A DNA stretch of 64,000 bases, taken from positions 29,196,166-29,260,165 of the forward strand of contig CAIIXF020000011.1 in NCBI GenBank assembly GCA_903813345.2, written 5' to 3'. The notes under the pieces are model-generated. The model was not told where the DNA came from. It saw only the letters and a list, made by a program, of their open reading frames with translations, and ran no database searches. This document shows, in pieces, positions 5,398 to 54,700 of the stretch. The position numbers and the translations under genes are program-made. This DNA comes from Owenia fusiformis (taxonomy: Eukaryota > Annelida > Polychaeta > Sabellida > Oweniidae). Position 1 is the first letter of the stretch, and each line of letters starts with the position of its first letter.

Positions 5398-5562
5398 ATG
5401 GAAAGAGGTGAAAAACAAAAAGAAAAGAACAGTGGTACAGTTCAAGAGGATCCTTCAATCATAAGTAGTTGGTTCAAGAAATCAAATAAACAAGAAAAAT
5501 CTCATGCTGTACAAATAGAACTTAGTAAGTGTGAACAAGTGGAAAAAAACAAAATACAGTAG
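5398..5562 (+). CDS. Short N-terminal Helentron frame (54 aa), out of frame with the main ORF
   Basis: The ATG at 5398 sits in an ideal Kozak context (ACCATGG) and opens a 54-residue lysine-rich frame (MERGEKQKEKNSG...) ending at TAA/TAG near 5562. The main transposon frame, one register away, is open from 5519 with no ATG until 5663. The basic, charged composition matches the start of the main protein, so this probably encodes its true N-terminus, joined by splicing or broken by a frameshift. A perfect donor GTAAGT lies at 5525; the nearest acceptor that restores frame is AG at 5566-5567, implying a very short 43-nt intron. If neither is used, it is an upstream ORF. Confidence 0.4.
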   Translation: MERGEKQKEKNSGTVQEDPSIISSWFKKSNKQEKSHAVQIELSKCEQVEKNKIQ

Positions 5563-8500
5563 AACAGAACAGTTATTGAATAATAAGAAACTAAGTAAAA
5601 CCAATCAAAATGAAGATTTGCCTAAAAAAAGGTATTGTGCTAAATATACGGCTGAACACAAAATGGCAAAAGAACTGTCTGAGGATAAATCTCCCAAAAA
5701 AGATATATTACACCAAAATAAAGAATCCAAAAAGTCACGAGCTGAATATATGGCAAAATACAGAAAAAGAAAGCACGAAGAACTATGTGAATACGAGACT
5801 TCTAGAAAGAAAATGAAAAGACAAAATCCAGAATACAAAGAAAGAGAAAATGAACTAAAAAAGAAACGACCTGGAAGAAAAAAGGAGATGGCAAAAATTG
5901 TACAACAGAAGGCAAACAAAAGACAAAATCCAGAATACAAAGAAAGAGAAAATGAACTAAAAAAGAAACGACCTGGAAGAAAAAAAGAGATAACAGAAGA
6001 TGTACAAAAGAAAGCAAACAAAAGACAAAATCCAGAATACAAAGAAAGAGAAAATGAACTAAAAAAGAAACGACCTGGAAGAAAAAAGGAGATAGCAAAA
6101 ATTGTACAACAGAAGGCAAACAAAAGACAAAATCCAGAATACAAAGAAAGAGAAATTGAACTAAAAAAGAAACGACCTGGAAGAAAAAAGGAGATAGCAA
6201 AAATTGTACAACAGAAGGCAAACAAAAGACAAAATCCAGAATACAAAGAAAGAGAAATTGAACTAAAAAAGAAACGACCTGGAAGAAAAAAGGAGATAGC
6301 AAAAATTGTACAACAGAAGGCAAACAAAAGACAAAATCCAGAATACAAAGAAAGAGAAAATGAACTAAAAAAGAAACGACCTGGAAGAAAAAAAGAGATA
6401 ACAGAAGATGTACAAAAGAAAGCAAACAAAAGACAAAATCCAGAATACAAAGAAAGAGAAAACAACTTGAAGAAAAAAAGACCTGGAAGAAAAAAAGAGA
6501 TAGCAGCACGTGCAATAGCAAGGAAAATCAGACAGAAGAGTGATAAATACAGAAAAAAGACAACATTGCGAGAAAAAGGGAAACACACCGGACAACTTAA
6601 AACAGAGCAGCTGATCAAAGATTTCAATATGAACTCTTCTAAAAAGCCATTTTATGTGTGTACAGCATGTCACCAAATGTTCTATCGTTGCAGTGTCAAG
6701 AAATTTAAAGTTTTTAATGATTCAGCAAGGCTTTGTAGTACTAAAACAAAAAGTGTCAGGGATATAGAATGGATTTGTTTGACATGTTCTAAGCAAATCA
6801 AGAATGGTCATATTCCATCTGTGTCAGTATACAATAAAACACTATTTCCTGTTATCCCATTGGAATTGAGAGACCTTACTCCACTTGAATGGCGATTGCT
6901 ATCACCAAGATTACCATTCATGAAGTTGCGTGCTGCACCCTCCGGAGGGCAACAAAAGATAACTGGGAATGTTGTAAATGTTCCGGCAAATGTAATACAA
7001 ACAGTGACATTGTTACCAAGGTTGCCAAGTAATGACAACACCATACAGGTAAAACTTAAACGACATCTGAAGTACAAGTCCTTTGTTTCTTCAGAAAATG
7101 TCAGGCCGGAAAAATTAAGAGAGGCAGCAGAAATTCTCACAAAGAAAACATTGTTTAAAGGAGAAGGTATACAAACTAATAAAAATTGGAAATCATTTGA
7201 ACCAACCATAGACGAAACTGAAAACTATTTAGAAAGGTCCAAGACACAGAAAGTAACTAGAACAGAATATCATCATGGAATTGTACCTAAAGACAATACT
7301 AATACAATTGATGGTTTGAATTCAACTTCACCATCTAAACATGGACCAGAAGATCCTCTAAAATCTCGACAATCAACGTCTGGAACAGAAAATCCTGAGA
7401 ATGTGGTTCCTCCATTAGACAGTGCCGTTACTGAAGGTGGGAGTATGGTTCCATCACCAGCACCACTAAAATGCTTACATGATGATTTTGTACCAACAGG
7501 AAAAGGAAAAGATAGTTCTTTAGAAATTAAATCACCACCTTCTAGTGAAAGCAAATATTTAAGTTCAGGAACACTACATGATGCCGGCATGTGTTCCTCC
7601 TCAGGTGCTAGTGTATCATTGCATTCCCAAGAATCAATGGAACCTTCTCTATCAGATGATACTAAACCTGATTTCAGTAGAAAACAAAATGGGAAAGGTA
7701 CTCTTTCAGCAATCGCTTCGTATCACCAAGGGTCATCAACATTTAAAGACTCCAGTCGTGGCAAACAGTGTACACCGATGGCATTTGCAGCTATTGGATA
7801 CAGTTCTTTTAAAAATGCAAGGTACTGGGAAAAGCATGATATGAATTATGTTCTTCAGAGTGGTGATCATGTCTACAATTCAAATACCCACAAGTATGAC
7901 TACTATGACAGTGATGAGTTGCCAAAATATTACTATTATGAAACTAAGAAAGTTGAGATGAAGTGTGATATGTGTTACTTTGGTATTTTGAATGAAAAAC
8001 ACAAAGTATTTCAAGCATTGAGCAGTGCGTTAGAACATTCATCAGATGTAATGGTTACATGTGCAGGTTTCACGACTGCTATAATGAAACGAGAGAACAA
8101 ATACTTTTGGTTTGATTCACACTCAAGAAACACCAAAGGTCTTTTACATTGTAATGGGAAAGCAGTATTGATGAGGTTTCCAAATCTAATTGCAACTGTT
8201 AATCATATATTCAAGTTGTATGAGAATAACATTGGGTGTCAGTACCAATTGACATGTATACAGACATCTGTAGAGAAAGATTTCAAACTAGCTGATGTAA
8301 CTCATCTAACAGGCCACAATGTAAAAGGATTGAGCACTGTTATACCAAATGTTAGTAATGAAAATGATAGCTGCCTGACAGCAAGTAACACCTATGTTTG
8401 CAATGAGAAGAGAGGAAATTCAATTAGTAATGACAAAGACATATCAGGAGATATACAAGTTGAATCCAATATAAATGAAGAGGTTTGGGAAGAGATTGCC

Positions 8501-11500
8501 ATAGATAGTGAACATGGTAACTTGGATACACTTCTCACATCCCCTGATTATATTGAGGAAAATGAAAGGGATATAGTGTACAACATTGCTCCAGGTCAGT
8601 ATAACATTCCTTTAAATATATTCCAAGATATGTATAGCGAAGAGCTAGCATTTCCAAACATTTTTGTTGGTTCTTCACGAACTCCTCAGTCTGAAAGACC
8701 AAGCAAGAAAAAGTTGTATTACAGTGAACTGGTAAAAGCTGAATTAAGAAACATTGACAGAAGAGCAGCTCAATGCACAGATAATATTTTCTTTAAAACC
8801 AAGAAACTACAAATGCAGCAATTATCTGATAAGGCGAATATTGCCATCAGAAAACTCCAGACAAAAGGGCAAAAACTCACAGCATCGAAGGTGAAAGATT
8901 CAGAACATATAACTAATTTAATTCACCATGATAAGGGATATAAAATATTAAAAACCCTTCGAGGATCACCTCCCTATTACCAAAAAGCTCACAAAGATCT
9001 ACTAGCAATGATTAGAACTGTTGGACCTCCAACTCTATTCTGTAGCTTCTCTTCGGCTGAAACACGATGGCCTCATTTGCTTCAAACACTTGCTAAGTTG
9101 GATGGTGAAGATATAACACTACAGGAAGCAAGGGATTTGAAATGGTCTGAAAAGTGCAGGCTCATTCAACTCGATCCAGTTATGTGTGCCAGACATTTTA
9201 ACCACAGAGTCAATTATCTCTTCAATCACACATTAAAGAGTAAGGATTCTCCAATTAAAAAAATGAAGGATTTCTTCTACAGGGTAGAATTCCAAAATAG
9301 GGGCAGTCCACATATCCATTCCCTTATTTGGTTGGATGGAGCACCAAATATTAATCACTGCCAAGATATTGAAATTACTGCTTATGTCGATTCTGTTATT
9401 TCCTGCCATATACCATCAAGTGAAGAAGATGAAGAACTCTCTGAGTTGGTTCAACTCCAACAACACAGGCACACACACACTTGTAGAAAAGGTAAAAAGT
9501 TCCAGTGCAGATTTGGATATCCTCTACCACCGATGTCATCGACAACAATTTTATATCCTTTAGACAAGGATAATCCTGATTTCAAAAAACATACAGAAAA
9601 TTGGTCCCATATCAATGAAGTGATAAATGGTCTTAAGTTTGGCGAGGACATATCATTTGAAGATTTTCTCTCAAAAACCAAACTTACTGAAGAAATGTAT
9701 TTACTTGCTGTATCAGCCAGCTTGAAAAAAAGGACACTTTTTCTGAAACGACAGCCATCTGAAATACGAAGCAATGCCTATATTCCATTTCTGTTGAAAC
9801 TTTGGAAAGCAAACATGGACTCTCAAATTTGTCTAGACTCATACGCTGTTGCTATGTACATTTCATCATACATTATGAAAGACCAGAAAGGTATGAGTGA
9901 GCTTTTAAGATCATGCTGTGAAGAAGTTGAAAGAGGAGCAAGTTCTATTCGAGATCAATTAAAAACCATTGGTAACAAATTTCTAAATTCAGTGGAAATA
10001 AGTGCCCAAGAAGCAAGTTACATTTGCCTTCAGTTGCCAATGGTTCAATCCTCGAGAGCAGTAAAGTTTGTGAACACAAGCCCTGAAGAAAACAGAGTAT
10101 TTTTACTTAAACCCAGAAATGTACTTGAAACTCTTGATGATGATGATGAAGATATTAGCTGCAAGGACCAAGTACAAAGGTATTGTGATAGGCCACATTC
10201 ACTTGAACATTGTACATTTGCTGAATATTCTGCATACTATGATGTTAAAACAAAGTCCATGCAGCCAACTCAAAGAAAAAAACCTTACATTCTGCGATAT
10301 GTTCATTACAACAAAGAAAAAGATCCCGAGAACCATTACCGTGAACAGCTTATGTTACATACGTCCTGGAGAAAAGAAAGTAACATAAAAGGAACTCATT
10401 CTTCGTATGAAGAAATGTTCTTTAAAAGACAAGAGGACATCAACCTACAAAAAGCCAAGCTTGAACCATTTTCTGAATATATTGATGAAGCTATGGATAT
10501 GGTGGAAAATGAAGTAAATGAGCCCTACATCGATGATACAATTGCACCTTGTACTGAGGCAAATGAGGAGAGAGATGTAGCTATAGATGAAAAGAACAAA
10601 CAGGAGCGAGATGATACCTGTCATTATTCTACAGATCAATCATGTAATATAGATAAGCAGTTGAAAGCAACCCGAGAAATGCAAGAAACAGAATATTCCC
10701 AATTAATGAGATCTTTAACAATAACGCAAAGGGGATTTTTGAATCATATTGTCCATCATCTGAAAACATGTGATACTGCAATTTACAAATTTATCAATGG
10801 AGGTGCTGGTGTAGGGAAAACACACTTAACAAAAGCTATATATCAAACTTTAACAAAATATTTCAACAGCAGGGTGTCTAATCCACCAGATGGCATATTT
10901 ATTTTGGTTGCAGCACCAACTGGGAAGGCTGCCTTCCTCATAGAGGGAAATACAATCCATTCTATATTCAAGGTGCCAGCAAATCAAGGTTTTAATTATG
11001 AACCATTGACATCAGATAAGCGAAATACGCTTAGACACAAACTACACAATTTGAAACTTTTAATAGTGGATGAGATATCCATGGTTGGCAACAATATGTT
11101 AACCTTTATTCATAAACGCTTACAAGAAATTACTGGAGTTCCTAAAGATTTTGGTGGATTACCAATTATTGCCGTTGGTGATTTTGGACAACTTGCACCA
11201 GTTTGCGATAACTGGATATTTTCTGATCTGAAAAGGGGGTATGGCTCTTTAGCTACAAACCTGTGGCATAATTTTCAAATCATGGAGTTAGTTGAAGTGA
11301 TTCGACAAAAAGAGAAAACTTTTGCAGAAGCTCTTAACAGACTTCGTGTAGGGACACATACAGATGCCGACATAGAGTTATTTAGCAGTAGGTGCATTTG
11401 TAGAGACAGTGATAACTATCCACTTAATGAGCAGCACCTTTTTCTCAGTAATAAGAAAGTCAATGAACACAATGAATCTGTATATTCACTTTCTTTGTTA

Positions 11501-12793
11501 CGCAAACAGCATTTTAAAGCATATGATGTAGTTGTTGGAGATCTATCATCTGAGCACAAATCAGCAGTCCTGCAAAGAATTCCTGATGATCCTGCAAAAA
11601 CAATGCAACTGTCAAATATGTTAAAGATCTCTGTAGGACTCAAGTATGACATTTCTGTAAATATGGACGTTGAGGATGGTCTCACAAATGGTGCAAATTG
11701 TATCGTTAAAGACATTTCCTCCATCTCATCCAGCTATGCATCTGGTGTTATTTGGGTACATTTTAATGAAGCACGTATTGGCAAAATGACAAGACAGCAA
11801 AATAAGCATTTATATACACAGCTTATTGACAAATCCTGGACACCGATAATACCAATAAGTAGAGAGTTTCAAGTTGGACGAAGCAAGCATGCTCGAGTTT
11901 TACGAAAACAATTTCCCCTTCGTCCTTCTAATGGTAAAACAGTATGGAGAGCACAAGGAGATACCATGAATAAAGTTGTCATTGATTTTACCGGGAGAAC
12001 AAGCAGACATGTGCATTATGTAGCACTGAGTCGTGCAACTAGCCTTGATGGCTTATTTCTGCTCAACTTTGACCCAAGCAAGATCAAAGTTGATGATCAA
12101 GTTCAAACAGAAATTGAAAGGTTAAGGAATGCTCCACAAGGAGATGAATATAATAAACTTTTACGGACACAATCAAGCTTGAAATTAGTATATCTGAATG
12201 CACAGTCACTCCACAAACATCTTGAAGATATCAATGCACATGAAGCACTTCTAAGTTCCCATATTATGATGTTTTCTGAAACAAGATTTAAAGAAAGTGA
12301 TGATAAAGTTATTGACAACTTTGTAGGCGTGCATTACATTGAACAGTCTCATTTAAGACCATTCCATGGTTCATCATTGTATTATAAGACTTCTCTTCAT
12401 TTAGAAACACTTATGGTGGAGAACCACAAAGGCATTGAGATAATAGTTGTAAAACTATCCACGGATATACATATTGTTGAACTATATAAACCCCCACAAA
12501 TTATGGTGAAAACCTTGATTGAAGCACTGGACACAGCAAGGATAGTAACAACTTCTTTTACAAATACCATCATACTTGGAGACATTAACATCAATGTTAT
12601 GACACCTGAACATAATCTGATAATAAGCTATCTTTCCAAATATGGGATGAAGCAAATAAGTACAGGCTATACAACAGACCTTCGAACAACCATAGATCAC
12701 ATTTATACCAATTGCAAATCTGACAATGTCCAAGCAGGTACAGAAGAAGTGTACTACAGTTACCATAGTGCTATATGGGTTGCATTAGATTGA
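5531..12793 (+). CDS. Helentron replicase: Zn finger, peptidase-like, HUH Rep, PIF1-type helicase, AP-like endonuclease
   Basis: About 2420 aa, uninterrupted. The frame is open from 5519; the first ATG is 5663 (residue 45), and the true start is probably upstream at 5398. Domains in order: basic 34-residue repeats (96-333); CxxC pair (C377/C380, C416/C419); a cysteine-peptidase-like domain with GKQC (C747) and FDSH (H864), as found in several Helitron-like proteins; Helitron-like N region and Rep with HUH motif (H1261-I-H1263) and two-tyrosine motif YISSY (Y1443, Y1447); PIF1-type helicase with Walker A GGAGVGKT (about 1757-1764), Walker B IVDEIS (about 1846), GDFGQLAP, and C-terminal AQGDTMNKVVID and VALSRAT; endonuclease-exonuclease-phosphatase domain (about 2217-2420) with LNAQS, SETRF, LGDIN (about 2349), TIDHIYTN (about 2387) and YHSAIW. 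Rep-helicase-endonuclease order defines Helentrons. All catalytic motifs are intact. It would nick, unwind and strand-transfer its own ends in the nucleus. Confidence 0.92.
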   Translation: MNKWKKTKYSRTEQLLNNKKLSKTNQNEDLPKKRYCAKYTAEHKMAKELSEDKSPKKDILHQNKESKKSRAEYMAKYRKRKHEELCEYETSRKKMKRQNPEYKERENELKKKRPGRKKEMAKIVQQKANKRQNPEYKERENELKKKRPGRKKEITEDVQKKANKRQNPEYKERENELKKKRPGRKKEIAKIVQQKANKRQNPEYKEREIELKKKRPGRKKEIAKIVQQKANKRQNPEYKEREIELKKKRPGRKKEIAKIVQQKANKRQNPEYKERENELKKKRPGRKKEITEDVQKKANKRQNPEYKERENNLKKKRPGRKKEIAARAIARKIRQKSDKYRKKTTLREKGKHTGQLKTEQLIKDFNMNSSKKPFYVCTACHQMFYRCSVKKFKVFNDSARLCSTKTKSVRDIEWICLTCSKQIKNGHIPSVSVYNKTLFPVIPLELRDLTPLEWRLLSPRLPFMKLRAAPSGGQQKITGNVVNVPANVIQTVTLLPRLPSNDNTIQVKLKRHLKYKSFVSSENVRPEKLREAAEILTKKTLFKGEGIQTNKNWKSFEPTIDETENYLERSKTQKVTRTEYHHGIVPKDNTNTIDGLNSTSPSKHGPEDPLKSRQSTSGTENPENVVPPLDSAVTEGGSMVPSPAPLKCLHDDFVPTGKGKDSSLEIKSPPSSESKYLSSGTLHDAGMCSSSGASVSLHSQESMEPSLSDDTKPDFSRKQNGKGTLSAIASYHQGSSTFKDSSRGKQCTPMAFAAIGYSSFKNARYWEKHDMNYVLQSGDHVYNSNTHKYDYYDSDELPKYYYYETKKVEMKCDMCYFGILNEKHKVFQALSSALEHSSDVMVTCAGFTTAIMKRENKYFWFDSHSRNTKGLLHCNGKAVLMRFPNLIATVNHIFKLYENNIGCQYQLTCIQTSVEKDFKLADVTHLTGHNVKGLSTVIPNVSNENDSCLTASNTYVCNEKRGNSISNDKDISGDIQVESNINEEVWEEIAIDSEHGNLDTLLTSPDYIEENERDIVYNIAPGQYNIPLNIFQDMYSEELAFPNIFVGSSRTPQSERPSKKKLYYSELVKAELRNIDRRAAQCTDNIFFKTKKLQMQQLSDKANIAIRKLQTKGQKLTASKVKDSEHITNLIHHDKGYKILKTLRGSPPYYQKAHKDLLAMIRTVGPPTLFCSFSSAETRWPHLLQTLAKLDGEDITLQEARDLKWSEKCRLIQLDPVMCARHFNHRVNYLFNHTLKSKDSPIKKMKDFFYRVEFQNRGSPHIHSLIWLDGAPNINHCQDIEITAYVDSVISCHIPSSEEDEELSELVQLQQHRHTHTCRKGKKFQCRFGYPLPPMSSTTILYPLDKDNPDFKKHTENWSHINEVINGLKFGEDISFEDFLSKTKLTEEMYLLAVSASLKKRTLFLKRQPSEIRSNAYIPFLLKLWKANMDSQICLDSYAVAMYISSYIMKDQKGMSELLRSCCEEVERGASSIRDQLKTIGNKFLNSVEISAQEASYICLQLPMVQSSRAVKFVNTSPEENRVFLLKPRNVLETLDDDDEDISCKDQVQRYCDRPHSLEHCTFAEYSAYYDVKTKSMQPTQRKKPYILRYVHYNKEKDPENHYREQLMLHTSWRKESNIKGTHSSYEEMFFKRQEDINLQKAKLEPFSEYIDEAMDMVENEVNEPYIDDTIAPCTEANEERDVAIDEKNKQERDDTCHYSTDQSCNIDKQLKATREMQETEYSQLMRSLTITQRGFLNHIVHHLKTCDTAIYKFINGGAGVGKTHLTKAIYQTLTKYFNSRVSNPPDGIFILVAAPTGKAAFLIEGNTIHSIFKVPANQGFNYEPLTSDKRNTLRHKLHNLKLLIVDEISMVGNNMLTFIHKRLQEITGVPKDFGGLPIIAVGDFGQLAPVCDNWIFSDLKRGYGSLATNLWHNFQIMELVEVIRQKEKTFAEALNRLRVGTHTDADIELFSSRCICRDSDNYPLNEQHLFLSNKKVNEHNESVYSLSLLRKQHFKAYDVVVGDLSSEHKSAVLQRIPDDPAKTMQLSNMLKISVGLKYDISVNMDVEDGLTNGANCIVKDISSISSSYASGVIWVHFNEARIGKMTRQQNKHLYTQLIDKSWTPIIPISREFQVGRSKHARVLRKQFPLRPSNGKTVWRAQGDTMNKVVIDFTGRTSRHVHYVALSRATSLDGLFLLNFDPSKIKVDDQVQTEIERLRNAPQGDEYNKLLRTQSSLKLVYLNAQSLHKHLEDINAHEALLSSHIMMFSETRFKESDDKVIDNFVGVHYIEQSHLRPFHGSSLYYKTSLHLETLMVENHKGIEIIVVKLSTDIHIVELYKPPQIMVKTLIEALDTARIVTTSFTNTIILGDININVMTPEHNLIISYLSKYGMKQISTGYTTDLRTTIDHIYTNCKSDNVQAGTEEVYYSYHSAIWVALD
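5816..6529 (+). repeat. In-frame 102-bp minisatellite, seven copies, in the Helentron ORF
   Basis: Seven copies of a 34-codon unit beginning KRQNPEYKEREN and containing KKKRPGRKKE. Copies 2 and 6 share the variant end ITEDVQKKAN; copies 4 and 5 share EREIEL; copy 7 diverges (IAARAIARK). The shared variants imply block duplication after the single units diverged. The unit is about half lysine/arginine with an AT-hook-like RPGRKK core, so a DNA-binding or nuclear-targeting role is likely but inferred. Being a multiple of three, the array can change copy number without breaking the frame. Confidence 0.95.
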
Positions 12794-29770: not shown

Positions 29771-32700
29771 ATGGATACCTTTGGACATTCTTTTAAAGAA
29801 CCAAGATGGACATCACAGATAAGGTCATTCCTGTCTCAATTTACAGACTTATTCAGTGCATTTGAATCGTACATTGCACCATCCTATCACCATGATAGGA
29901 TTGAGAGGTAAGAAGGGTATAACCATTACCGTTTTAAATCCAGTTTTAGACAGAGGAACTGGGATTTATTCCAAAGTGTATGGACTTATAAATGATAACT
30001 GCCTAAAATTCGCCTCAATATTGTAGAACGGCTTCTACATTTTACACATGTTTATAAGGCATCATGCATTATCATTTTCTGGCCAATCCTGGCAGTGGGG
30101 ACAGCTTGGAAGCAGCAAAGCCATGCTGTTGACATCAAACAGCTAGCACGGAAAAGATGACTCTTTTATGATCTTAGTCAAATCTTATCATTATTACCGG
30201 GCATTATTACCGATTAGTCATTACTTATGTATGTCTAAGTGTTAGGAATTATACCCATGTTGAGCCATATGACTCCTATAAAAGTGGCAGGTTGGCTTTC
30301 AGTTCTTATGCATAGGCTAGATCCTCCATCTAGGCCTACTTTTCTTTTTACTGAGAATGTCCTTATTTTTTAATTTTATGGGCCTTGAATTTTCAAGATT
30401 ACGGCTCACTTTTTGGTTTAAGGGCCAACATATTTTATCAGACTTAAAATATGCCCCCCCCCCCCCAACCTTATTGGTTTACAGATCCCCCCCCCCCCCC
30501 CCCCCGTAGGCCTAATGTATTGGTAAACATGAACACTTTTGAAATTGATTCATGCGGGCCTCTATTTTATGATGATAAAGACATACCATTTCCAATAGTT
30601 TGGTTTTACTTTTTTTTACAAAGAAAGAAAAGGAAAAAGAAAGGCCTCTAGAAACAGTCACTGAGCAAAATATATTTTTCATTTTCACTTCCATTTATAG
30701 ATGGCGTGTGTGTTTTTGACCTTGACAGTAGCCATATTAAAAATAAAATGAGAGAAATCGATGCGTGAGTTGGCGTTTTATTTTACTCTATTATCCTTTA
30801 GATGAGGCTCAATATATAAACATACTTTTATATTTTGTTCAACGTGAAAGAGACTACATATGGTTGTATTTTAGTGAACCTTATGCAGTTGTGTCATGAT
30901 CAAAACGGAATGATTGGGAGTGCAGACGCTTTTTGAATTTTATTTTCAGTTTTTTTTAGTTTTTATTTATTTATATTTTTTGAATGATGTTTAAGGAATG
31001 CTGAAATACTCAGTAAATGAGGTAGGAATTTGAATTGTTAAGGCGTGGATTATCTTTTATGTTGTAATCATGAAATCATCTAACAGCTAAAGTGCTGATA
31101 TATAATAATCAAGGGTGCGTTTTCAAACTACTATTTTTTTCAAGGCCTGTCTGCGTCGCTAACATGCTAAATATAAGAGTTAGCTGACGTTTGGGAGTCT
31201 TACTTACCTTCTAAAGGTTAGAACCCGAATCTTAATGAAACCATATCACCTTTGTTCCGTCAACCATGGAGCATTTGCCACAACATCCAAGAGGTAAATC
31301 ATGGATCGAGAAAATGAATGATTTCCTTGTAAGTTCCGGAAGTTTCAATACGAAAAATTACCGAACATATGTGAAAACCGAATATTTGTTCGTTGTTTTC
31401 ACGATTTACAGGTTCGTTTGTTCTTCAATGTTTTGGTCTAAATTATAAAGCATCACCAACAGGTCTTTCTCTATTAATCGACTAATACAGCAGACTGCTC
31501 ATATTTCTACGTAGCATTTCATTCAGACCAATAGTGGGAGTGTAGATCACGCAGTTTCGTTCGTTGCGTACTTCACTTGAAATTGGTAATTTTTAATATT
31601 GACTACTTCACTTAGCTTGGCGGATGTAGAACATTGCTTAATATTCTTTTAATTTTCACACCAGACATGCTTGGTTGACACGTCAACAAAGTAAAGTTCA
31701 AGGGTCAATGCGTTATTTCGTGATAACTACAACGCCTTCCCGGAAGTCAACATTGATGAAAAATGAAAAAGTCGGAAAAGCATTTACGCTAATTTCTATC
31801 AAATGCTATGTTTATGCATGGGCTTTCAACTAGAAGGGTATGCAACTCTATGTAATATTATGAGACTTTCAAAATGAGCAATGACATGGTTCCTTTTTAT
31901 GGCAATATTTCAAAAAGTATTAGATAAATGTATATGTTTTAGTATTATTTTGAATAAAAATCAATTTTAAATATGATTTAAGCATAAAATATATTCAATA
32001 TCATATAAAAGTAAACAAAAGAGACCAATAAGAATAAGAGTTATCAAGATGTTCTCTTTGAGTATTGCATTGTGGGTAATTATTCAAGAACACATTCCAA
32101 TAAAAAACATAATTTGTGGGAGAATGTTCACTTTCTGTATTGTCATAATTATGATGAATTCCAATTTTTATTAAATTATCAAGATGTATGTAGAAGATCA
32201 TGTTTTTATTTTTGAGTTATTTCTTTTAATCATCAATAAAAAGTGCAAAATAAGATTTTCTTGGAATGTGTACATTCTCCAATTTTGAAAACCCATGGCA
32301 ATGTTTATGTATGAAATATGGGAAGTTGCCTACCCTTCTAGTTGAAAGCCCATGGTTTATGCATCATCATCGACGCAACAAAGGTGATATAGTTTCATTA
32401 AGATTCGGGTTCTAACCCTTAGAAGGTAAGTCAGACTCCCAAACGTCAGCTAACTCTTATATTTAGCATGTTAGCGACGCAGACAGGCCTTGAAAAAAAT
32501 AGTAAACAGAGTGCTCCTACCAAAACAAATTTGCCTACATACCCCTGAGACTCTTATCTGATAGATAGAATGCACAAATAAAACAAAAGATTTGCTATTA
32601 TAGGTAAAAGGTTCTCTTGAAATTTCGAAGTGATTTTACCTGTTAATTCTGTCCATTGTCCACTATTTTGGCGGAAGTTACACTGAAACACAAACTCCAT

Positions 32701-35700
32701 GAAACGAAACGAAATCACTAGAAAAAATATGGCATACATTGTGCGCATGTGCAGCAAAGTTTTAACCAATCAGATTATTTGATTATTTGCGCACATGAAT
32801 TATTTGCTTCTGAGCACTTACAAGCTTACCACAATAAACAAACCTGGCAGACACTACCCTGAGCCTACTTCATTTTGGCGAAATTTCAGCTCAAACTCGT
32901 GACAAATTAACTATGCATACGCTGGTGTGAAGCCTTGGAGACACTCATTTTGGTAAATATGATTTATGGTGTATACTTTTCTGCAGTTTGTGGGAGTTTG
33001 GAACATTAAATGTTAAAATTCAAGAAAATATGCCAATAATACGACTAATCAATTAATATATACCAGCACTGTATAGATGATGATGATGGTTATCATACAG
33101 TCAAAAGATTGGGATGTTCTCCCGACACGGGGTAAAGTTTGCCCTCACTAACTAGACTAAACCATAGACATGGGATTCATTTGAGATTTCATTGATGAAA
33201 CAATTTAGACCTGGAACTCAGAAATGAATAATATTCCCTCAGTTTATAGCCAAGCAACCCCTAGGTAGCAACCACATCCTAACATAAGCAACGAACCTCA
33301 CCGCGTCCCTAGAACCAATCAAATTTTGACAAAATCAAGTATATTTGATTGGCTTTAAGGAAGAATAAAATGAGAAACACTCAGATAATGTATATTATAG
33401 TATAACCTCCTTGTAGGTGCAGGATTATGCTCACTCTCTCTTCAGTTCTCTGTGAAAATATTAATTAGGCTTTAATTCATTCATATTCATATTATTACTC
33501 TGATGATTTGTTGTTAAAGAATCATATCATGTTTTCATTTATGTTGCTCATGCTTTTATTATTATTTTATTAACAAAGTAAAGTGAGAAACGAAATGACA
33601 ATTCTCATGATATAATGGGTAACCGAAGAATATTTAAAACATATATTGATTTTGTGATATTCAAGTCAATATCACCAAATATATATTCTACCAAAACAGC
33701 ATGCATGCAGTTGAAAAAACAATATAGTACTGCCTACTGGTTATTATGATTACTCAAAATAACAGGTGATTTTGATAAAAAAAAACTGGAGAAAATAACC
33801 TGCATACTACAGGTTTAACCCCTGGAGCTAAGACTAAATTAGCTAGAGACAGATGACATTTGGTAGATTTTCATCCATCTGTTGGATCATTCGTCCACTT
33901 GTACCATTGGTTGTACCTAGGATGAAATGGTACAAATTGAAACTGATATTTATAAGTCATCTCGTATATGCAGATTTGCTAATGTTTATCCAATGTTTCC
34001 TTGGCATTTTACGAATTGGCATTTTCTAATTTCTTTTATTTTCAAGACAATGGCGATTTTTATGCCAAAAAGTCACTTTCAGATAGCATTCATTACGTGA
34101 TTAAGTAAATTTGGATCTTTATTTAAAAAAGACAATTAATGAAAATCTATTCATGGTACACACGTTTGTTGAGAATTATAGTATGTAGCAGATGTAATAG
34201 TAAAAATCCTATGAATAAAATTACACATTTTTATATGCATATGTTGCAGCATTGCTTATAAAATAATATGTAGGTTTATGAATTCTATCACTTAATTCCA
34301 TTGCTTAAGTATTTCTATATACTGTATGATATATTTCAGTTGTAGGCCTAATTCAGTTTTTTATTTCTGATATCAGTGCTCATATAGATTAAGATTTATG
34401 GATATTGATCTAGATTTAAAATCAATAAAGTTGTATCCTACTGCAGCACACATGTTACACATGAGGTCTGCAAATTAGATATAATAGCATCCTATGTTCT
34501 TAGCTGCATTCCATATATCTGATTCGTGGCATTTATCTATTTTATATAAAAGTACAAATGACTAGAAGCCACTCCAGATGAGACTATTTCAAGGGATCAA
34601 ATGAAAATCAAAAATCCTAAAGGTTGGAAATAACATTACATCAATAAATGCTGTTCCAGGTCGGTCCAGATGAGACTGTACGCTCTGAGTAAACGCCAGT
34701 TTGTGCTGGTGTTTGTTACCTTCTTCGTTTGCTTTGGTGTATCCATACTCATAGGATTGGCAGGTACGTCTTCAATGTGTATTCACTTGGAAAAGTCTAA
34801 TAAGCTCACCATAGTTCAAAATATATATTTTGCATCAACTCCATGATACACCTTTTTAATAGATTTTTTATTTATTTGAATGTTAATTATGTTCATTTGT
34901 TTTAATGATTTCATAACCCTCATTCGACTTAGCTTCTTAAAACAGAGCTTCGTCATCTCATAATATAGTCCATCTAGTTCAATGTGTCATGTTACTTTCA
35001 GGTCCTCCTATATTACAGTCCATCTAGTTCAATGTGTCATGTTAATTTCAGGTCTTCCTATTTTACAGTCCATATAGTTCAATGTGTCATGTTACTTTCA
35101 GGTCCTCCTATATTACAGTCCATCTAGTTCAATGTGTCATGTTACTTTCAGGTCCTCCTATATTACAGTCCATCTAGTTCAATGTGTCATGTTACTTTCA
35201 GGTCTTCCTATTTTACAGTCCATATAGTTCAATGTGTCATGTTACTTTCAGGTCCTCCTATATTACAGTCCATATAGTTCAATGTGTCATGTTACTTCCA
35301 GGTCCTCCTATATTACAGTCCATCTAGTTCAATGTGTCATGTTACTTTCAGGTCTTCCTATATTATAGTCCATCTAGTTCAATGTGTCCTGTTACTTTCA
35401 GGTCCTATATTACAGTCCATATAGTTCAATGTGCCATGTCACTTTCAGGTCCTCCTATATTACAGTCCATATAGTTCAATGTGTCATGTTAGTCATGGGT
35501 CATTTTATATTACAGTCCATCTAGTTCAATGTGTCATGTTACTTTCAGGTCTTCCTATTTTACAGTCCATCTAGTTCAATGTGTCATGTTACTTTCAGGT
35601 CTTCCTATTTTACAGTCCATCTAGTTCAATGTGTCATGTTACTTTCAGGTCTTCCTATTTTACAGTCCATATAGTTCAATGTGTCATGTTAGTCATGGGT

Positions 35701-38700
35701 CCTCCTATATTACAGTCCATATAGTTCAATGTGTCATGTTACTTTCAGGTCCTCCTATATTACAGTCCATATTGCTCAATGTGTCTAGTTCAATGTGTCA
35801 TGTTACTTTCAGGTCCTCCTATATTACAGTCCATATAGTTCAACGTGTCATGTTACTTTCAGGTCCTCCTATATTACAGTCCATATTGCTCAACGTGTCA
35901 TGTTACCTGTTACTTTCAGGTCCTCCTATATTACAGTCCGTACAGTTCAATGCCACATCATTGCCAAAGGTTCCACAAGACCTCAAGGTAAGTAACTGCA
36001 TCAACAATAAAGCCTTCATGTACTTTTGGCTCCATCCTGCCAATATATAACAGTATACAGGGCTCTCACCAGGAAATATTTAGGGTGTGGGGCTAACATC
36101 TCCAGAATAACCATTCAGTCGTGATAAATCATATTTATGTTATGTTTTATCCTTTTTACAGGCTATTATTGTATATTAAGTCAAGTTTAGACTGTGGAAA
36201 TAGTCATGATTTGCCAATAGGGTGTGGAGGGAGCTAAATAGAGTGTGGTGCTGCGCCACAGTCTAAAAGCCTGGCGAGAGCCCTGGTATAGACTATAGAA
36301 AGACTCATCAGTCTCTTTCTGGATTGAGGCAATATAAATCTTTCGAGAAAACAGGCACTGTGCCCAGATGATAATCTGAAAAATACTGTGTATCCAATCA
36401 ATTTCTATCACCAAGTTGAAAAAATCCTGGTTAGAATATGATATCGTGCAAAGCACATTATTTTGTGTTCTCATTGCTAATGTTATCACCATAATTATAC
36501 ACTGAATAGCGCAGATCATTATGAGTTATTTAATGTGTGATATTGTGATTTAAACTCAATAACAGTTTTTTGTATATTTCAGAAAGGTCCATTTATCAAA
36601 AGATCTCCACCCATGTCTCCCTACCACCAACAGCTGTGGCTCATAGCAGAGATCATACCCACTGGCAGCAAATGTAAGTTTATACATATTATTACACATG
36701 CTTTCTTTAGAAGAGTGGAATGTTACTTTATGTTTGTTTTGTGTCAGTTGTACACACTTATTAATGAATTTTGATTTTATTCAAGGGTTTCAATTCATTA
36801 CACAACCCTTACAAGATGTATTAATTAAGAACCATAACAGTATGTTCCAAAAATCCAGTTTCTAATTTGTTTCTAACATTTTGCATGTTAATGCCCTGTG
36901 CCACCGTTTTTAACCATGATAAATACAAACTTGTTTCTTTAATATGTTCACCAAATGTTACAATGTAAATCATGCAAATTCAAAGTTATTACAGCTGGCA
37001 GATCTTTTTTATGTTTCAAATCAATTTCAAATTCCTACCATAAGTGTAGAGTCCAGTAACAGTTGAAGCTCTCTTTACCAGTTGAAGCTCTCTTTTAAAA
37101 ACAAAATCATATGAATGCAATAAATACTTGTTATTTTCCATATCCTATTATTTAAAATTAATATCAACATGAGTATGCGATTTTATCCCATCCCTTAATT
37201 TTTTATTTGAGATGTTCCCTTTCTGAAATCTGGCTGCAAGCATGCACATTCTGTATTACTACATGCTATGAACAGGTACATGTACATGACAAACTAATTG
37301 TATAAAATGTGTGTATTTCAGCAACAGGGATCACTCATCCATTCACAGTAAGTGTCCAGATTAGAGGAAGTGAGAAGATCAAAGATGAGAACTCAAGCAA
37401 AGAGCTCTATGATGGACATATGCATAACAGAACTCGCATCTTGCAGTGTAAAAATGGGGTAAGAAAAGAAGAACTTATAAGAGTTGTACATGTACCTAGG
37501 TATGAGACATGCAAAAATATTTTGCCTCACCAAAATATTGCGGAATAATCAGATGATTTTTCAACTGGAAATGATGCAGTGGTAGTTTAATATCTCATTT
37601 AGTTATAATTTGCCTCACCTACTTATATTTGCCTGACCTATTTTTAGAATTTTAGTTTGCCCTTGTTGAAATTCAGAAACAGCCCATTTACTCTTGATTT
37701 AAAGCAATTTTATAAAATGGCATGAATTAGCTTCACCAACATTGATATTACAGAAACTCCTGTAGAGGTAAAGCATGTAATAACCTCATATTTTACACCT
37801 AGGTAAACAATGAGGACTTAGTTTTATGACATCAGTAATATGATAGTAAACAATGTTATTTCAAACATGTACATTGTAATTGTATTCAAAGGTTTGAGTA
37901 AATATGAAATCCACTTCAAAATGTTGACTAATTTTATGAGTCTGGTAGATTTGAAGTGGTTTACACTTTTACTTTCATGATTGTATTAGTAACAGATCTT
38001 TCAAGATAAGTCAACTTTGGGAACAATTGAAAATTTGACTTACATATTTTATAGTTTTTTGGTGGTTTGTATATTTATACAAATTCATATGTAGTTTATT
38101 GTTAAAAGTATAACATTTCAAATAGCTAAATTTTAACAGTAATACATGTAAATGATATCAAGATTTAAGTATATGTGGATGTACATGTACAACTTTACTC
38201 TCTTACTTTATGAGTTGCAAATAACTCAAATACATACAATCAGACATATTAGACATTTTGGCCCCCTATTATCATCATCATTTTTTCATTCTCATTGATC
38301 TTAATATAAGAATATAAATCCTGATGTATTTTTATTTACACTTTAATGGGAGTGTCTGAAAATGTTTTGAATTGAGATAATTTCTATATAAAAAGAGAAA
38401 CAAATTAGGCTAAACTGTATTCCCTTTTCAACCCAACATTTAATTTCTTTTTCTTTTTTATCCGATTTAAAGTTATGAATTTCAGACGTATTGCACATAC
38501 ACTGTATAGGATAAAACAAAAAATAAAACTGAACTTGAAAATGTAATTCATCAAAGCTCAAATATTACAAAATGTCAATTCCCATTTTCTGTTTTTCTGC
38601 TCCCATTGTATGAATTTTTATATCTTATGATTGTTTTGTTTCAGAAATGTGATGAGCTGATACTTCTTCATTTAGGCTTCCTAGACTTCACCTACTACAC

Positions 38701-48798: not shown

Positions 48799-51700
48799 CT
48801 ATAACTGACTCTTGTGTTCAATTGGTGGTCTAAATTGTTGAATCAAGTCCCTGACCTGAGCTGAACCTTCAATATGTTGCCTTTCCATATAGTTTTTGCT
48901 ATTTTGCTCAGTATCAGAGAGGAAGTAGCGATAATTCACCATTATCCCGCAGGAACTAGAAAGACCCCTTGGTGACACATCTGCCTTCCAGTTTAATCGC
49001 CACATGACTGCACCATTACGCAGGTGAAAATGAGCTGCAAATAAAAATGTTGTCATTTTATAATACCTTATTTACAGAACTCTTCTAGTTATCCTCAGAT
49101 TAATTCACTTTAATTATTTTCTTGAATACATATATCATAAGTAAGGTGATAAATGGTATATCTTGCAAGGAAAGACATCTTCCTAATCGATTGTTAGTTA
49201 ACACCATATAATGGATAACTTTTTGATCATAATGATGTGATTTCAGACAGGGGTATATTTAAATGTGTCAAGAATTCCCATAGGCTTTTATATATGGCCA
49301 GACTGATGTAGACAAACTGCACAAGTTGTAATACAAGGCCTTAGTTGCATTAATGCATGATCCCTCATAGTCTGATATTTAAAATTAAGGAGCAGCACTC
49401 ACCAACAGGGTTCAAAGCATATCCTCTATGTTTCTCTATATACAAGTATTTAGCACACAATCTCATAAGGGGTCCTTCTAGAATGGTCCGTAGTGCCTCT
49501 GATACTGCCCAGCTATTGTCAAGTAGCACTTTTTTTATAGCCTCTAATGGGAGCTGGTCAGTCAGTGGCAGGTTGCTCATTATGGACTTTATTTCTTCTT
49601 CGGTGAATACCTCCTCTTGGCATGCTGTAAACATGAATGATACACTGTATAAATAATATTCTGTAACATGCTTGCAATTTATACTTTTAAATATTTTGAA
49701 TCTGAAGTCAAATTTTACGTAACAATATCTAGTATGTACTGATTATAGACTGGAATCTTCAGAACCCAGTTGTTGTCCTGTCCTGATACAAAAGTCTGCT
49801 GTTTTGGAAATTGTGCTCTATTGCTCAATCAATAGATAAAGGATGATCTTATCAGTAAATACCAATGATAATCTATGCTTCCATTTTCTCTTTCATTTTG
49901 ATTCATTTAGCTTTTGATCTATGACTAAAAATATAAAAAATAATGACCCATGGAATATATACGCACCTTGGGGTGTCTTTTTCATGTTATTGATGAAATA
50001 TTGTATGATGTAATTTTGAATGAATAAAGTGAATTGAAATTGAATTGAATAGACAATACTATTATGAATGGTGTTCTATAATGTTGTTCGATATTGATGA
50101 ATGTGATCTCTATTTAGAAATATTACTTTGAACTTTGAAAAATTGTTGATATAAATCCCCATGAACTAAGTTCGATGGAACAACTAAGGTTAACTTACGA
50201 TTATGATGTAGGTGTTTGTTAATCTCAGTAATAAGCCAGTCTCTGAAGCCTGGGATTGGAGAAAGACTAGAAAACTTTGTCAAATTTCTAGGGTACTCAG
50301 CTAACAGTTCCCTCACCACACGTTTAATCAAATAATTGCCCAGGTCCACACCTTGTAAACCTGAAAATATAGGATTATGTAAATATAGGATTATGTAAAT
50401 ATAGGATTATGTAAATATAGGATTATGTAAATACAGGATTATGTAAATACAGGATTATGTAAATATAGTATTATGTAAATATAGGATTATGTGTGTCATG
50501 GGTTATCACAGTAAAGATTTTTCACATAAGATATAGATGGCATTTTCACTTGCAACCATTTTGCTGAATTGTCAGGACCCAGATCAATCTGCATATCTGA
50601 ATACAAAAAGTCTTACCAAAAATATATTTTAAAACATGTACTTTGTGATCTTAACACATGGACAGTATGCAAATACAATTGAACATGTTTGTCCATTCCA
50701 AGTCAAAAAACATTTTCCTTCAAATGTCCCCAAGGTGCGGGAGGTTTATGTAAAGGGAATGGATTATACTACAGTGAGATACTCCAGGTAAGGATGAATT
50801 GGGCACATGAGCAGGCAGCCTCGTAGCCAGGTGGGGTTCGATGGGTTAGAGCGAACCCCTACCTGGCCAACAAATCTTTCAAAATCATGCAGTTTTTCAC
50901 CATTCTCAGGGCCGTCAGATGGGGGGGTGCGATGGGTGCGACCGCACCCCCCTTTGACAACCCCCAAAAAAATTTGAAAAAATAAAAAATTTTGAAATTT
51001 TTTTTTGAATTTTTTTTTTTTTTCATTGACTCATACACTTTGAAAATGCCCAGAAAGCACCAAATAGCATCTCAAAATTGTAAAATTTTCTGGGGGGGGG
51101 GTTATTTATTTTATGTATAGTCTTTGACACTTTTAAAGTGCCCTGACATCATAGCTCCTTGATATAGTCAATGTTTCTTGGAGACTAACACTTACTCGCC
51201 CTTTGGCATCCCCACCCTACCTCGCTCTCTGGCACCCCCCCTTTAACCCCGCCCCCCCCCCCCCCCAAATTGAAAAGAAATTGTGATTTTTTCATATTTT
51301 TTGTTGAGTCATATACTTGGAAAGTGCCTATAGAAAGCACCAAATAGCAGATTAAAATTGCAAAATTTTCTAGGAGAGTTGGCCACCCCTCATATCCCAC
51401 ACAAAACAATTGAAATAATTCTGAATTTTGTGTATTGTCTCAGAGACTTTTAAAGTTCCCAGATATCAAGTAGCTCCTTGATATAGTCAATGTTTCTGGG
51501 GGACTAATACTTGCTCCCCCTCTGGCATTCCCACCCCACCTCTCCCTCTGGCACCCCCCCCCTTTGACACCCCTCCAAATAATGGAAAAAATTGTGATTT
51601 TCTCAAATGTTTTAATTGAATCATACACATTGAAAGTGTCCAGAGAGCACCAAATAGTGTCTTAAAATTGTAAAATTTTCTAGGAGGAGTAGCCCACTCC

Positions 51701-54700
51701 TCATACCCAAAACAAAACAATTGAAAAGTTCCGAATTTATTTCATATATTGTCTTAGACACTTTTAAAGTGCCCTGACATCATCAAATAGCTCCTTGATA
51801 TAGCCAATGATTCTTAGAGACTAACACTTACTCGCCCTCTGGCATCCCCGGCCCACCTCGCTCTCTGGCACCCCCCCCCCTTTAAACCCCCAAAATTAAA
51901 AAAATTGAGATTTTTTCATATTTTTTGTTGAGTCATATACTTTGAAAGTGCCTAGAAAGCACCAAATAGCATATTAAAATTGTAAAATTTTCTAGGAGAG
52001 TTGGCCACCCCTCACATCCCCCACAAAACAATTGAAATAATTCTGAATTTTGTGTATTGTCCCAGACACTTTTAGAGTTCCCAGGCATCATCAAATAGCT
52101 CCTTGATATAGTCAATGATTTTTACTTGCCCTCTCGCATCCCCACCCAACCTCCCCCTCTTGCATCCCCACCAAACCTCCCCCTCTGGCATCCATCCCCC
52201 CCCTTTGACCACCCCCAAAAACTAAAGCATTCATTTACTCAAACTCATTTGCTCAGAATTAATCAGAGAGCATCTTGAATTGACAGCATTTTCCTGTGCT
52301 GCCCCCTTCCTCTCTTTAGAAGAAAAATGATTGAAAATCTGAACTTCTTTAAATTGTTTCTATTGATTAAAACACCTTAAAGTGTCCAGAAATCATCTTT
52401 AGTCTAAAATCAATAAAATACTACAACATAGGCTGAATGACCCCAATATAGGGAGTAACCGACCCCCCCCCCCCCCCTCTGACTTACGCGATTTGATTTA
52501 CGCAGCAAAAATTGACAATTTCATATTCTCTTTAGTAAAAACCGCACCCCCCTTGGAGAAAAGTGTCTTACAGGCCTGATTCTGAGCACTTTTTAAGTGA
52601 TTTTGGCCATTTTTGGACCAAAATTGTCACAAGTAAACCCCCTCTATGGAATTTTTCAAGAAGTGAACCCCCTTGGCAAATCCTGGCAGGCATAGATGAA
52701 GATAGAATGTGTAAAGAGATGAACGTCTCACCTTTTTGTGTTGATGTTATTGAGTAGAATACTGCAGTGGTTATTTTACTTGTATCTTCTGTGTCTGCTA
52801 TAGTCTTGTTGTCACTCCCAGTTTCACGCACTATTGACTAAAACACATTGTTCTACTGTTAATACCAGTGGTCATTTCATAGAATAATGAAGTGAAGATT
52901 CATGTCATTTTAAGTACATGAACACATCGCAATTACTTACACATTAAATATCACACATTAAATTTAAAGGTATTTTATACTCGTATCATGATATGTGTCA
53001 CAGGACAAAAATATTGCCAAAGGAATTTTCAACTTAAGGATGGGACATTCGTGAAAGGACATAAAACTGTTGCATGCCGCTTCATAAAACTTTGACAAAT
53101 TTATCAAGGTGAGAACTCAAAAATCTCCACTTAACATCTTTAAAGAGTAAGCTACGAGAGTTCAGAAAAGACCACTAGGGTAGTTTTAACAAGTACTATG
53201 CTTTTTCCAAATAAGGGTACAGAGTCAGAGTTCTTCATAATAGTTTCTACTTCAAAAACAGATAATTCAATTTTTAATTCCAAAACAAGAACACAAATGT
53301 GTACAAAATGTCCCCACCAAGTGGTGATCCTGTGAAATGGTTATCCTGAAAATGAGTAGACAAGACTTTACCAACACAATTTGAGGACGGAAAATCCAAA
53401 GTGGCCACCTTAAAATTTACCCAGAATGCCAAAAATTTAGTCAGTTCTAGATTTTCATACTAAGAACCACCCCTGAAAATTTGAAATTGATCCGTCACAC
53501 AGTTAACCAGAAAACATGTAAACAAGACTTTACAGACAAGATTTCAGGATGGAAAATCCAAAATGGCTGCCTTGACATTTACCAAGAATGTCAAAAAACT
53601 AATCTGTTTGTAGATTTTCATACTAAAAATCATCCCTGAAAATATGAAATTGATCTACCAAACGGTTCACCTGAAAACGGGTAGACAAGACTTTACAGAC
53701 AAGATTTTAGGACAGAAAATCCAAAATGGCCGACAATAAAAAAGTCCTTATGAGTTTTACAGGCAAGATTTTAGGACGGAAAATCCAAAATGGCTGCCTT
53801 GACATTTACCCAGAATGCCAAAAAACTAATGAGATCTAGATTTTTATACTAAGAATCATCCCTGAAAATTTGAAATTGATCCATCAAACGGTTCACCTGA
53901 AAACGCGCAGACAAGACTTCACAGACAAGATTTTAGGACCGAAAAATCCAAAATGGCCGACAATAAAAAAGTCCTTATGAGTTTTTGCTGATTTCTTTTT
54001 ACAAAATTATCACATATAACTACTGTTAACAATAAAGTAGGGTTTTACAGCAAAGTACATCTGAAATTATTTATAAAGCTACTAAATAGTTAAAGTATGA
54101 AAACTCAAAAACACCATTCAATATGATACAAAGTATTATCGCGCGCTAACTTTTCTTAAGACATTCAAAATGGCTGACATGACTGAGCTAGCAGGTCCAA
54201 AACCTAATCAGATCTAGAATGAAGTGAGCTCAACAAGATGTTAAAGTTTTAAAAGCAACTGTGAAGCAGTTTTTCTTAAAGTTTGCAGACAAGGATTTTA
54301 GCATTCGACTTCAAAATGGCCGACAGGAAGTAGGTATCGAGTTAATTTTTTTTCATCCACATCTGTATGCACTCATAAGTTATCCCTGAAAATTTGAAGG
54401 TGATATCTGTAGCGGTTTTGGAGAAAACTGCCGGACGTACGGACAGACGGACAGACAGACGGACAGACAGACGGACGGACGCGCCTAGGCCGACAATATG
54501 GCCCCACACTATGTGGTGGGGACATAACAATTACCTGAATACTATCTGATATATCGCTAGTGAGGGCAGTATGAAGGACCACAACAGGCTCAAGAGGCAT
54601 ACTATTGTGCGTGAACACAAAACAGCGTCTGTAGGGCCCAACTCGACGCTTCAGGTCTGCCCAATTACGAATAGGATGTACAGCCTCATAATCAGATATC

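What the first reader, a model, noticed from the sequence alone, without database searches (positions are those of the whole stretch)
34969..35987. Splice acceptor and start of TMEM181 exon 3 tandemly amplified about 20-fold
The 50-bp intronic unit is a copy of the exon 3 acceptor plus its first codons. Most copies end in an in-frame TAG, whereas the true exon has GTACAG/CAG. The spliceosome meets up to twenty decoy acceptors before the real one; use of a decoy would give a truncated protein or, by splicing through several, a poison exon. This could be a copy-number-variable control of TMEM181 output.
Basis: seen in the sequence. Interest (0 to 1): 0.8.

Follow-up and report, generated by a model that had tools for sequence, protein, structure and literature searches.

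The report
Tandem splice-acceptor copies before TMEM181 exon
In a marine worm's TMEM181 gene, one intron is mostly filled by 18 back-to-back copies of its own 3' splice boundary; the annotated protein matches use of the real boundary, so the copies are likely passed over in most messages, like the "mirage" repeats known from lancelets, although most of them would truncate the protein if used.

Summary
The window carries TMEM181, most likely of the annelid Owenia fusiformis: the 480-residue model matches a deposited protein exactly. A minisatellite of about 50-bp units (34960-35919) fills 960 of the 1156 nt of the intron before exon 3. Each unit copies the boundary: about 17 nt of intron end plus 33 nt of exon 3. 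There are 18 copies plus a partial one; 16 of 18 keep AG|GT. If used, 14 of the 16 meet a stop within nine codons; 35749 and 35863 stay in frame and open (+57 and +19 residues).

The regulatory reading is neither supported nor excluded. The decoys score like this gene's real acceptors, but the true acceptor outscores all 16 and has a longer AG-free stretch (38 vs 22 nt); the deposited protein uses it. Two mutated units hold the best cryptic donors of the intron, so a poison exon is possible on paper.

The structure is a "mirage" minisatellite, described in amphioxus genes and reported there not to disturb splicing. It is a new member of a known kind, here in an annelid.

The parts
34660..34763 (+). 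TMEM181 exon 2 (ATG of the first conserved methionine at 34670) up to the donor GCAG|GTACGT; by sequence encodes the first hydrophobic helix
   Evidence: gene model from 34670 identical to P0001 residues 13-492; acceptor read
34960..35001 (+). partial first copy of the unit
   Evidence: alignment of units, TRF start
35002..35919 (+). 18 full copies of the 50-bp boundary unit (lengths 47-64 nt), which start at 35002, 35052, 35102, 35152, 35202, 35252, 35302, 35352, 35402, 35449, 35499, 35549, 35599, 35649, 35699, 35749, 35813 and 35863; the acceptor is intact before 16 of them and broken before 35499 and 35699
35449..35498 (+). unit whose acceptor end was replaced by GTTAGTCATGG; donor-like CAT|GTTAGT after 35487
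35649..35698 (+). second unit with the same replaced acceptor end; donor-like CAT|GTTAGT after 35687
35749..35812 (+). 64-nt unit without the in-frame TAG; its acceptor would add 171 nt (57 residues) in frame
35863..35919 (+). 57-nt unit next to the true exon, without TAG and with a 7-nt insertion (35907-35913); its acceptor would add 19 residues in frame
35880..35919 (+). true acceptor region: 38-nt AG-free stretch and CCTGTTACTTTCAG
35920..35987 (+). true TMEM181 exon 3 (68 nt), source of the exonic part of the unit
   Evidence: its translation is identical to the deposited protein

Best explanation
The array is a minisatellite made of 18 tandem copies of the boundary between intron 2 and exon 3 of TMEM181 (a "mirage" of that boundary), and it is predicted to be carried as intron sequence and removed, with most transcripts likely spliced to the true acceptor at 35920. 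Shown: each unit is a copy of the last ~17 nt of the intron and first 33 nt of the exon; 16 of 18 keep AG|GT; the true acceptor scores above all 16, has a 38-nt instead of 22-nt AG-free stretch, and a strong donor (AAG|GTAAGT) 68 nt downstream; the deposited protein uses it. Inferred: a short duplication of the boundary was amplified by unequal exchange or slippage; the exon copies drifted and gained stops because they are not translated; the copy touching the exon diverged, lost its TAG and gained 7 nt, giving the true acceptor a somewhat better context; exon definition then favours the copy paired with a real donor at a normal exon length. Untested: how often decoys are used. Low-level use of the nearest ones (35863, 35813, 35749) would be the first leak to expect.
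For: Unit anatomy and counts. True acceptor 11.8 against 6.3-9.6 for the 16 intact decoys; 1 of 326 other intronic AGs outside the array scores as high. AG-free 38 vs 22 nt. Best branch-like match CTCAA at -28 before the true site, TTCAA at -21 before the 10 of 16 intact decoys that the call examined (recalled yUnAy consensus). The deposited Owenia protein uses 35920; the next protein in the ranking is 69% identical, so no second Owenia form of similar length stands among the 120 of 756 hits listed. The genome paper's gene set was built from RNA-seq, curated splice junctions and ab initio prediction (PMC9977687, passages). A search for short proteins with decoy-coded residues returned 1 hit among 15 candidates; it apparently runs from another animal's exon 2 into its intron and holds none. 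In 79 of 120 homologues that fit a simple pattern (P0001 among them) this segment is 61-78 residues, with no decoy-like insert. Amphioxus mirages in Adh3, TnC, globins and PGBD5: reported or suggested not to disturb splicing (PMC3087553, PMC3902484, passages).
Against: The intact decoys score like real acceptors of the same gene (median 9.6 vs 9.1); only 4 of 326 other intronic AGs outside the array reach that. Two of 11 real acceptors (36583 and 40655) have AG-free stretches of 15 and 21 nt, so 22 nt does not rule decoys out. The branch-like matches of true site (3.5) and decoys (3.0) are both weaker than those of 6 of the 10 other real acceptors examined (4.0-4.5). Each unit holds a second AG (TTACAG|TCC or TTATAG|TCC), 0.9-6.3 by the same matrix, so the field of possible acceptors is larger. 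The scoring matrix rests on only 11 sites. An annotated protein does not show absence of minor or decayed transcripts. No RNA and no second individual could be examined. In human ABCA7 a boundary VNTR of the same general kind goes with altered splicing.
Confidence: 0.74

Rival explanations
1. Copy-number-variable brake: decoy acceptors, or cassette exons from a decoy acceptor to the donors at 35487/35687, put a stop into part of the transcripts, which are then decayed; unit number would set TMEM181 dose.
For: 14 of 16 intact decoys give a stop within nine codons. The two broken units hold the two best donor-like sites among 130 non-genuine GT sites from 34764 to 35987 (5.0; real donors 4.05-11.57). 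All 11 cassettes under 300 nt that end there carry a stop. Longer VNTR alleles at a human ABCA7 exon boundary go with more exon 19 skipping and lower expression (PMC5954066, passages).
Against: No usage data. The donor score of 5.0 lies above only 1 of the 12 real donors. Only one allele is known here. Amphioxus mirages are reported silent. In ABCA7 the isoform that keeps one repeat unit was about 2% and did not follow VNTR length. The broken units may be one mutation copied once, which needs no selection.
Confidence: 0.12
2. The two stop-free proximal decoys make protein isoforms with 19 or 57 extra residues between the first helix and the GOLD domain.
For: Both are copies that lack the TAG; both are in frame and open through exon 3; 35863 would give a 125-nt exon, inside the range of 67-225 nt of exons 3-13. 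The linker length varies among homologues. Two weaker TTACAG sites, 35716 (3.5) and 35830 (2.1), would also stay in frame and open.
Against: No protein found carries such residues. The two copies share the variant, probably by descent, 114 nt (38 codons) apart, so the joint frame match is close to a one-in-three chance. 35863 scores second lowest of the 16 decoys (6.5).
Confidence: 0.08
3. The array, or its length, is an assembly artefact.
For: Long-read consensus errors and haplotype purging can change tandem arrays; an aberrantly assembled mirage was reported in amphioxus (additional-file legend in PMC3087553).
Against: The array is 1 kb; the reads of the published genome have N50 of 25.75-30.75 kb and the assembly was polished with short reads (PMC9977687, passages); copies differ by distinct substitutions and indels. 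That this window comes from that assembly is inferred.
Confidence: 0.03

Closest known systems
"Mirage" minisatellites of intron-exon boundaries in amphioxus (Adh3, globins BflGb6 and BflGb9, troponin C, PGBD5)
   Same: Tandem copies of an exon-intron boundary (in BflGb6, as here, intron end plus exon start); many but not all copies keep splice signals; the boundary copy escapes homogenisation; regular splicing reported (PMC3087553, PMC3902484, passages)
   Different: Annelid host and a different gene; 18 copies of about 50 nt (BflGb6 has 3 or 6 of 150-160 bp; Adh3 units are 10-72 bp); most copies carry a stop in the frame of the upstream exon; two copies turned donor-like
ABCA7 intron 18 VNTR (human)
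   Same: Intronic minisatellite (25 bp) that includes a splice site of the neighbouring exon (PMC5954066, passages)
   Different: Repeats a donor, is known to vary widely in length, and has measured links to splicing and expression; nothing of this is known here
Dual-specific AGGT splice sites in tandem repeats (UBC, VCX3A)
   Same: Tandem units each with AG|GT (PMC10809524, passages)
   Different: There the site works as both donor and acceptor; here CAG|GTCCTC and CAG|GTCTTC score very poorly as donors
NAGNAG and other tandem alternative acceptors
   Same: Several acceptors close to one exon
   Different: Those are a few bases apart and can be used; here copies are 50 nt apart and use is unknown (recalled, and listing)

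Membership tests
Mirage minisatellite | tandem array whose unit spans an exon-intron boundary of the host gene | tested here: met
   unit = ~17 nt intron end + 33 nt exon 3
Mirage minisatellite | many but not all units keep the splice dinucleotides | tested here: met
   16 of 18
Mirage minisatellite | inner units homogenised, boundary unit divergent | tested here: met
   15 units of 50 nt average 92.5% identity (80-100%); the last unit has the TAG loss and a 7-nt insertion. No tree was built
Mirage minisatellite | regular splicing undisturbed | tested here: inconclusive
   deposited protein uses 35920; no RNA available
Mirage minisatellite | length differs between alleles | not testable with these tools
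   one haplotype only; own-genome search did not complete
Dual-specific splice site repeat | unit's AG|GT serves as donor as well as acceptor | tested here: not met
   by sequence score only: -3.5 and -4.2 against 4.05-11.57 for real donors
Regulatory splice-site VNTR (ABCA7-like) | unit number changes splicing or expression | not testable with these tools
   needs RNA and several individuals

The most novel reading that the evidence does not exclude
A gene's own splice boundary has been amplified into a tunable decoy field: 16 competing acceptors, 14 of which would truncate TMEM181, two units that mutated from acceptor to donor and so would close a poison exon, and two stop-free proximal units that would lengthen the protein, with unit number acting as a dosage dial that differs between worms.
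Probability: 0.1. Interest if true: 0.75.

Novelty: new member of a known kind. Interest (0 to 1): 0.4.

Why it matters
It carries a structure described for cephalochordates into an annelid; no annelid case turned up in my searches of the open-licence library. With 16 near-identical natural acceptors ahead of one real exon, it is a ready-made test of how a spliceosome picks one acceptor among equals: by site strength, by AG-free distance, or by exon definition. Mirages have also been proposed as a source of new introns, and here two units have already turned from acceptor-like to donor-like.

Tried and rejected
Unit elsewhere: no further copy in the window on either strand at 32 of 50 or better. 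Other boundaries: none of the 23 other boundaries tested is duplicated. Selection on decoy acceptors: signal columns 41-50 are more variable than the rest with all 15 fifty-nt units (0.137 vs 0.053) and less variable once the two broken units are dropped (0.028 vs 0.054, 13 units); this is no test because copies are homogenised. Unit similarity does not fall with distance (r = 0.105). Frame match of the two stop-free decoys as a sign of function: rejected, since the two probably share descent. Second AG of each unit (TTACAG|TCC, TTATAG|TCC): 18 in the units score 0.9-6.3, below nearly all main decoys; joined to exon 2, 15 of 18 stop before the end of exon 3, 35716 and 35830 stay in frame and open, 35880 is open but shifts the frame. 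Proteins with decoy-coded residues: none found; 41 of the 120 listed homologues did not fit the pattern and were not counted. Exon 3 skipping would also truncate, with a stop at codon 76 of the joined frame.

Own mistakes: a first guess of the organism (Mytilus) was wrong. A first script failed at the end of exon 4 and gave a false frame; corrected. Searches took the exon 5 acceptor as 37328; the deposited protein uses 37322, so acceptor scores are quoted from the rerun (donor scores are not affected). Before the rerun the 16 decoys scored 6.0-8.8, the true site 10.5, and 3 of 327 other AGs reached the median taken over all 18 copies; after it 4 of 326 reach the median of the 16 intact ones.

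Not possible: comparison with related species' DNA, and the search of the own genome. Literature: PMC9977687, PMC3087553, PMC3902484, PMC10809524, PMC5954066, PMC2812944 and PMC7317903 were seen as passages only; all others as search listings; TMEM181 papers as a listing.

Full report
Identity of the locus. Exons read from the window give a 480-residue protein that is identical to residues 13-492 of P0001, a deposited partial protein of Owenia fusiformis. Pfam gives the TMEM181 GOLD domain and the Wntless-like membrane domain. The window is therefore taken to be from this annelid; that is an inference from the protein. Exon 2 is 34660-34763; exon 3 is 35920-35987; the junction is GCA G|GT CCT, phase 1. 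Exon numbers are nominal. An ORF from an unnamed source, apparently another animal, runs through the donor at the same codon, which suggests that the intron position is old.

The array. Of the 1156 nt of intron 2, 960 are the array. Eighteen full copies and one partial copy of a unit of about 50 nt lie head to tail. Fifteen of the 18 are exactly 50 nt and average 92.5% identity (80-100%); the others are 47, 57 and 64 nt. The consensus matches the first 33 nt of exon 3 at 30 positions and the true 17-nt intron tail at 14. The boundary is unique in this respect among the 24 boundaries tested.

What each decoy would do. Sixteen of 18 copies are preceded by an intact AG and begin with GT. If spliced to exon 2 and read through to the end of exon 3, 14 of the 16 stop: 12 at the same TAG, one earlier at TTATAG (35352) and one a codon earlier because of a 3-nt deletion (35402). 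Two, 35749 and 35863, are in frame and open, adding 57 and 19 residues. The two are related copies 114 nt apart, so this is not strong evidence of function. A second, weaker AG in each of the 18 units adds possible acceptors; 15 of these 18 also lead to a stop.

Why the true site should win. With a matrix from 11 other acceptors of this gene, the decoys score 6.3-9.6, the true acceptor 11.8, and the real acceptors 2.8-17.4 when each is left out of its own matrix (median 9.1). So the decoys are credible sites, and the true one is modestly better than every decoy. Every intact decoy has 22 AG-free bases before it and the true site 38, because the last unit lost its TAG and gained 7 nt. Two of 11 real acceptors (15 and 21 nt) have shorter stretches than the decoys, so this is a handicap and not a bar. 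The branch-like match before the true site is slightly better than before decoys, but both are weaker than before 6 of 10 other real acceptors (simple recalled consensus). Preference for the first AG after the branch point, and the harm done by an AG inside this zone, are documented (PMC7317903, passages). Only the nearest decoys would make exons of ordinary size: exons 3-13 span 67-225 nt, while 35863, 35813 and 35749 would give 125, 175 and 239 nt (computed from coordinates). Exon definition as the deciding force is an inference.

Cryptic donors. Two units (35449 and 35649) have GTTAGTCATGG where others have GTTACTTTCAG. This removes the acceptor of the next copy and makes CAT|GTTAGT, the two best of 130 non-genuine GT sites from 34764 to the end of exon 3 (5.0; 12 real donors 4.05-11.57, of which one is lower). 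All 11 cassettes shorter than 300 nt that end at one of them would carry a stop. This is the most credible route to a poison exon that I can see, and it is untested.

Evidence on use. The deposited protein follows 35920. The genome paper built its gene set from RNA-seq, curated junctions and ab initio prediction (PMC9977687, passages), so the model is likely but not certainly junction-backed. No other near-identical full-length protein stands in the list of 120 of 756 hits, and a search made for short decoy-containing proteins found none. These searches cannot see decayed or rare transcripts.

What is known. Tandem copies of intron-exon boundaries were named mirages in amphioxus Adh3 and seen in globin genes, troponin C and PGBD5; [quoted passage not shown] the Adh3 paper itself was not seen). 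The anatomical features that could be tested here are met. In human ABCA7, a VNTR that includes a donor site varies in length, and longer alleles go with exon skipping and lower expression, while the isoform keeping one repeat unit stayed near 2% regardless of length (PMC5954066, passages). So an effect on splicing is not far-fetched, though there it is not by use of the repeated sites. Human tandem repeats at exon-intron boundaries have been linked to new introns (PMC2812944, passages).

Verdict. The copy-number control is an open, testable idea at roughly one in eight.

Noticed in passing
50365-50492, - strand: A 16-bp minisatellite (8 copies of ACATAATCCTATATTT) ends a few bases before the inferred acceptor (TTTTCAG|GTTTAC) of a malonyl-CoA decarboxylase-like exon. 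Its units hold no AG, so it makes no decoys; a second repeat array at an acceptor in the same window.
   Followed up: partly
5531-12793, + strand: One open reading frame of 2420 residues with Helitron-like and PIF1 helicase domains and a 34-residue tandem repeat near its start (102-bp array 5816-6505): a Helitron-type transposon frame without internal stops.
   Followed up: partly
29771-29907, + strand: Likely upstream coding exon of TMEM181 (MDTFGHS...HHDRIER, then SVQMRL from exon 2) resembling the start of the Capitella protein P0016; the deposited Owenia protein begins differently, so alternative first exons are possible.
   Followed up: partly
37322-37328: The exon 5 acceptor is TTTCAG|CAACAG, with a second AG six bases on; the deposited protein uses the first. 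A possible two-codon alternative.
   Followed up: no
53356-53985 and 51108-52124: Further large tandem repeats (163, 227 and 317 bp periods), not examined.
   Followed up: no
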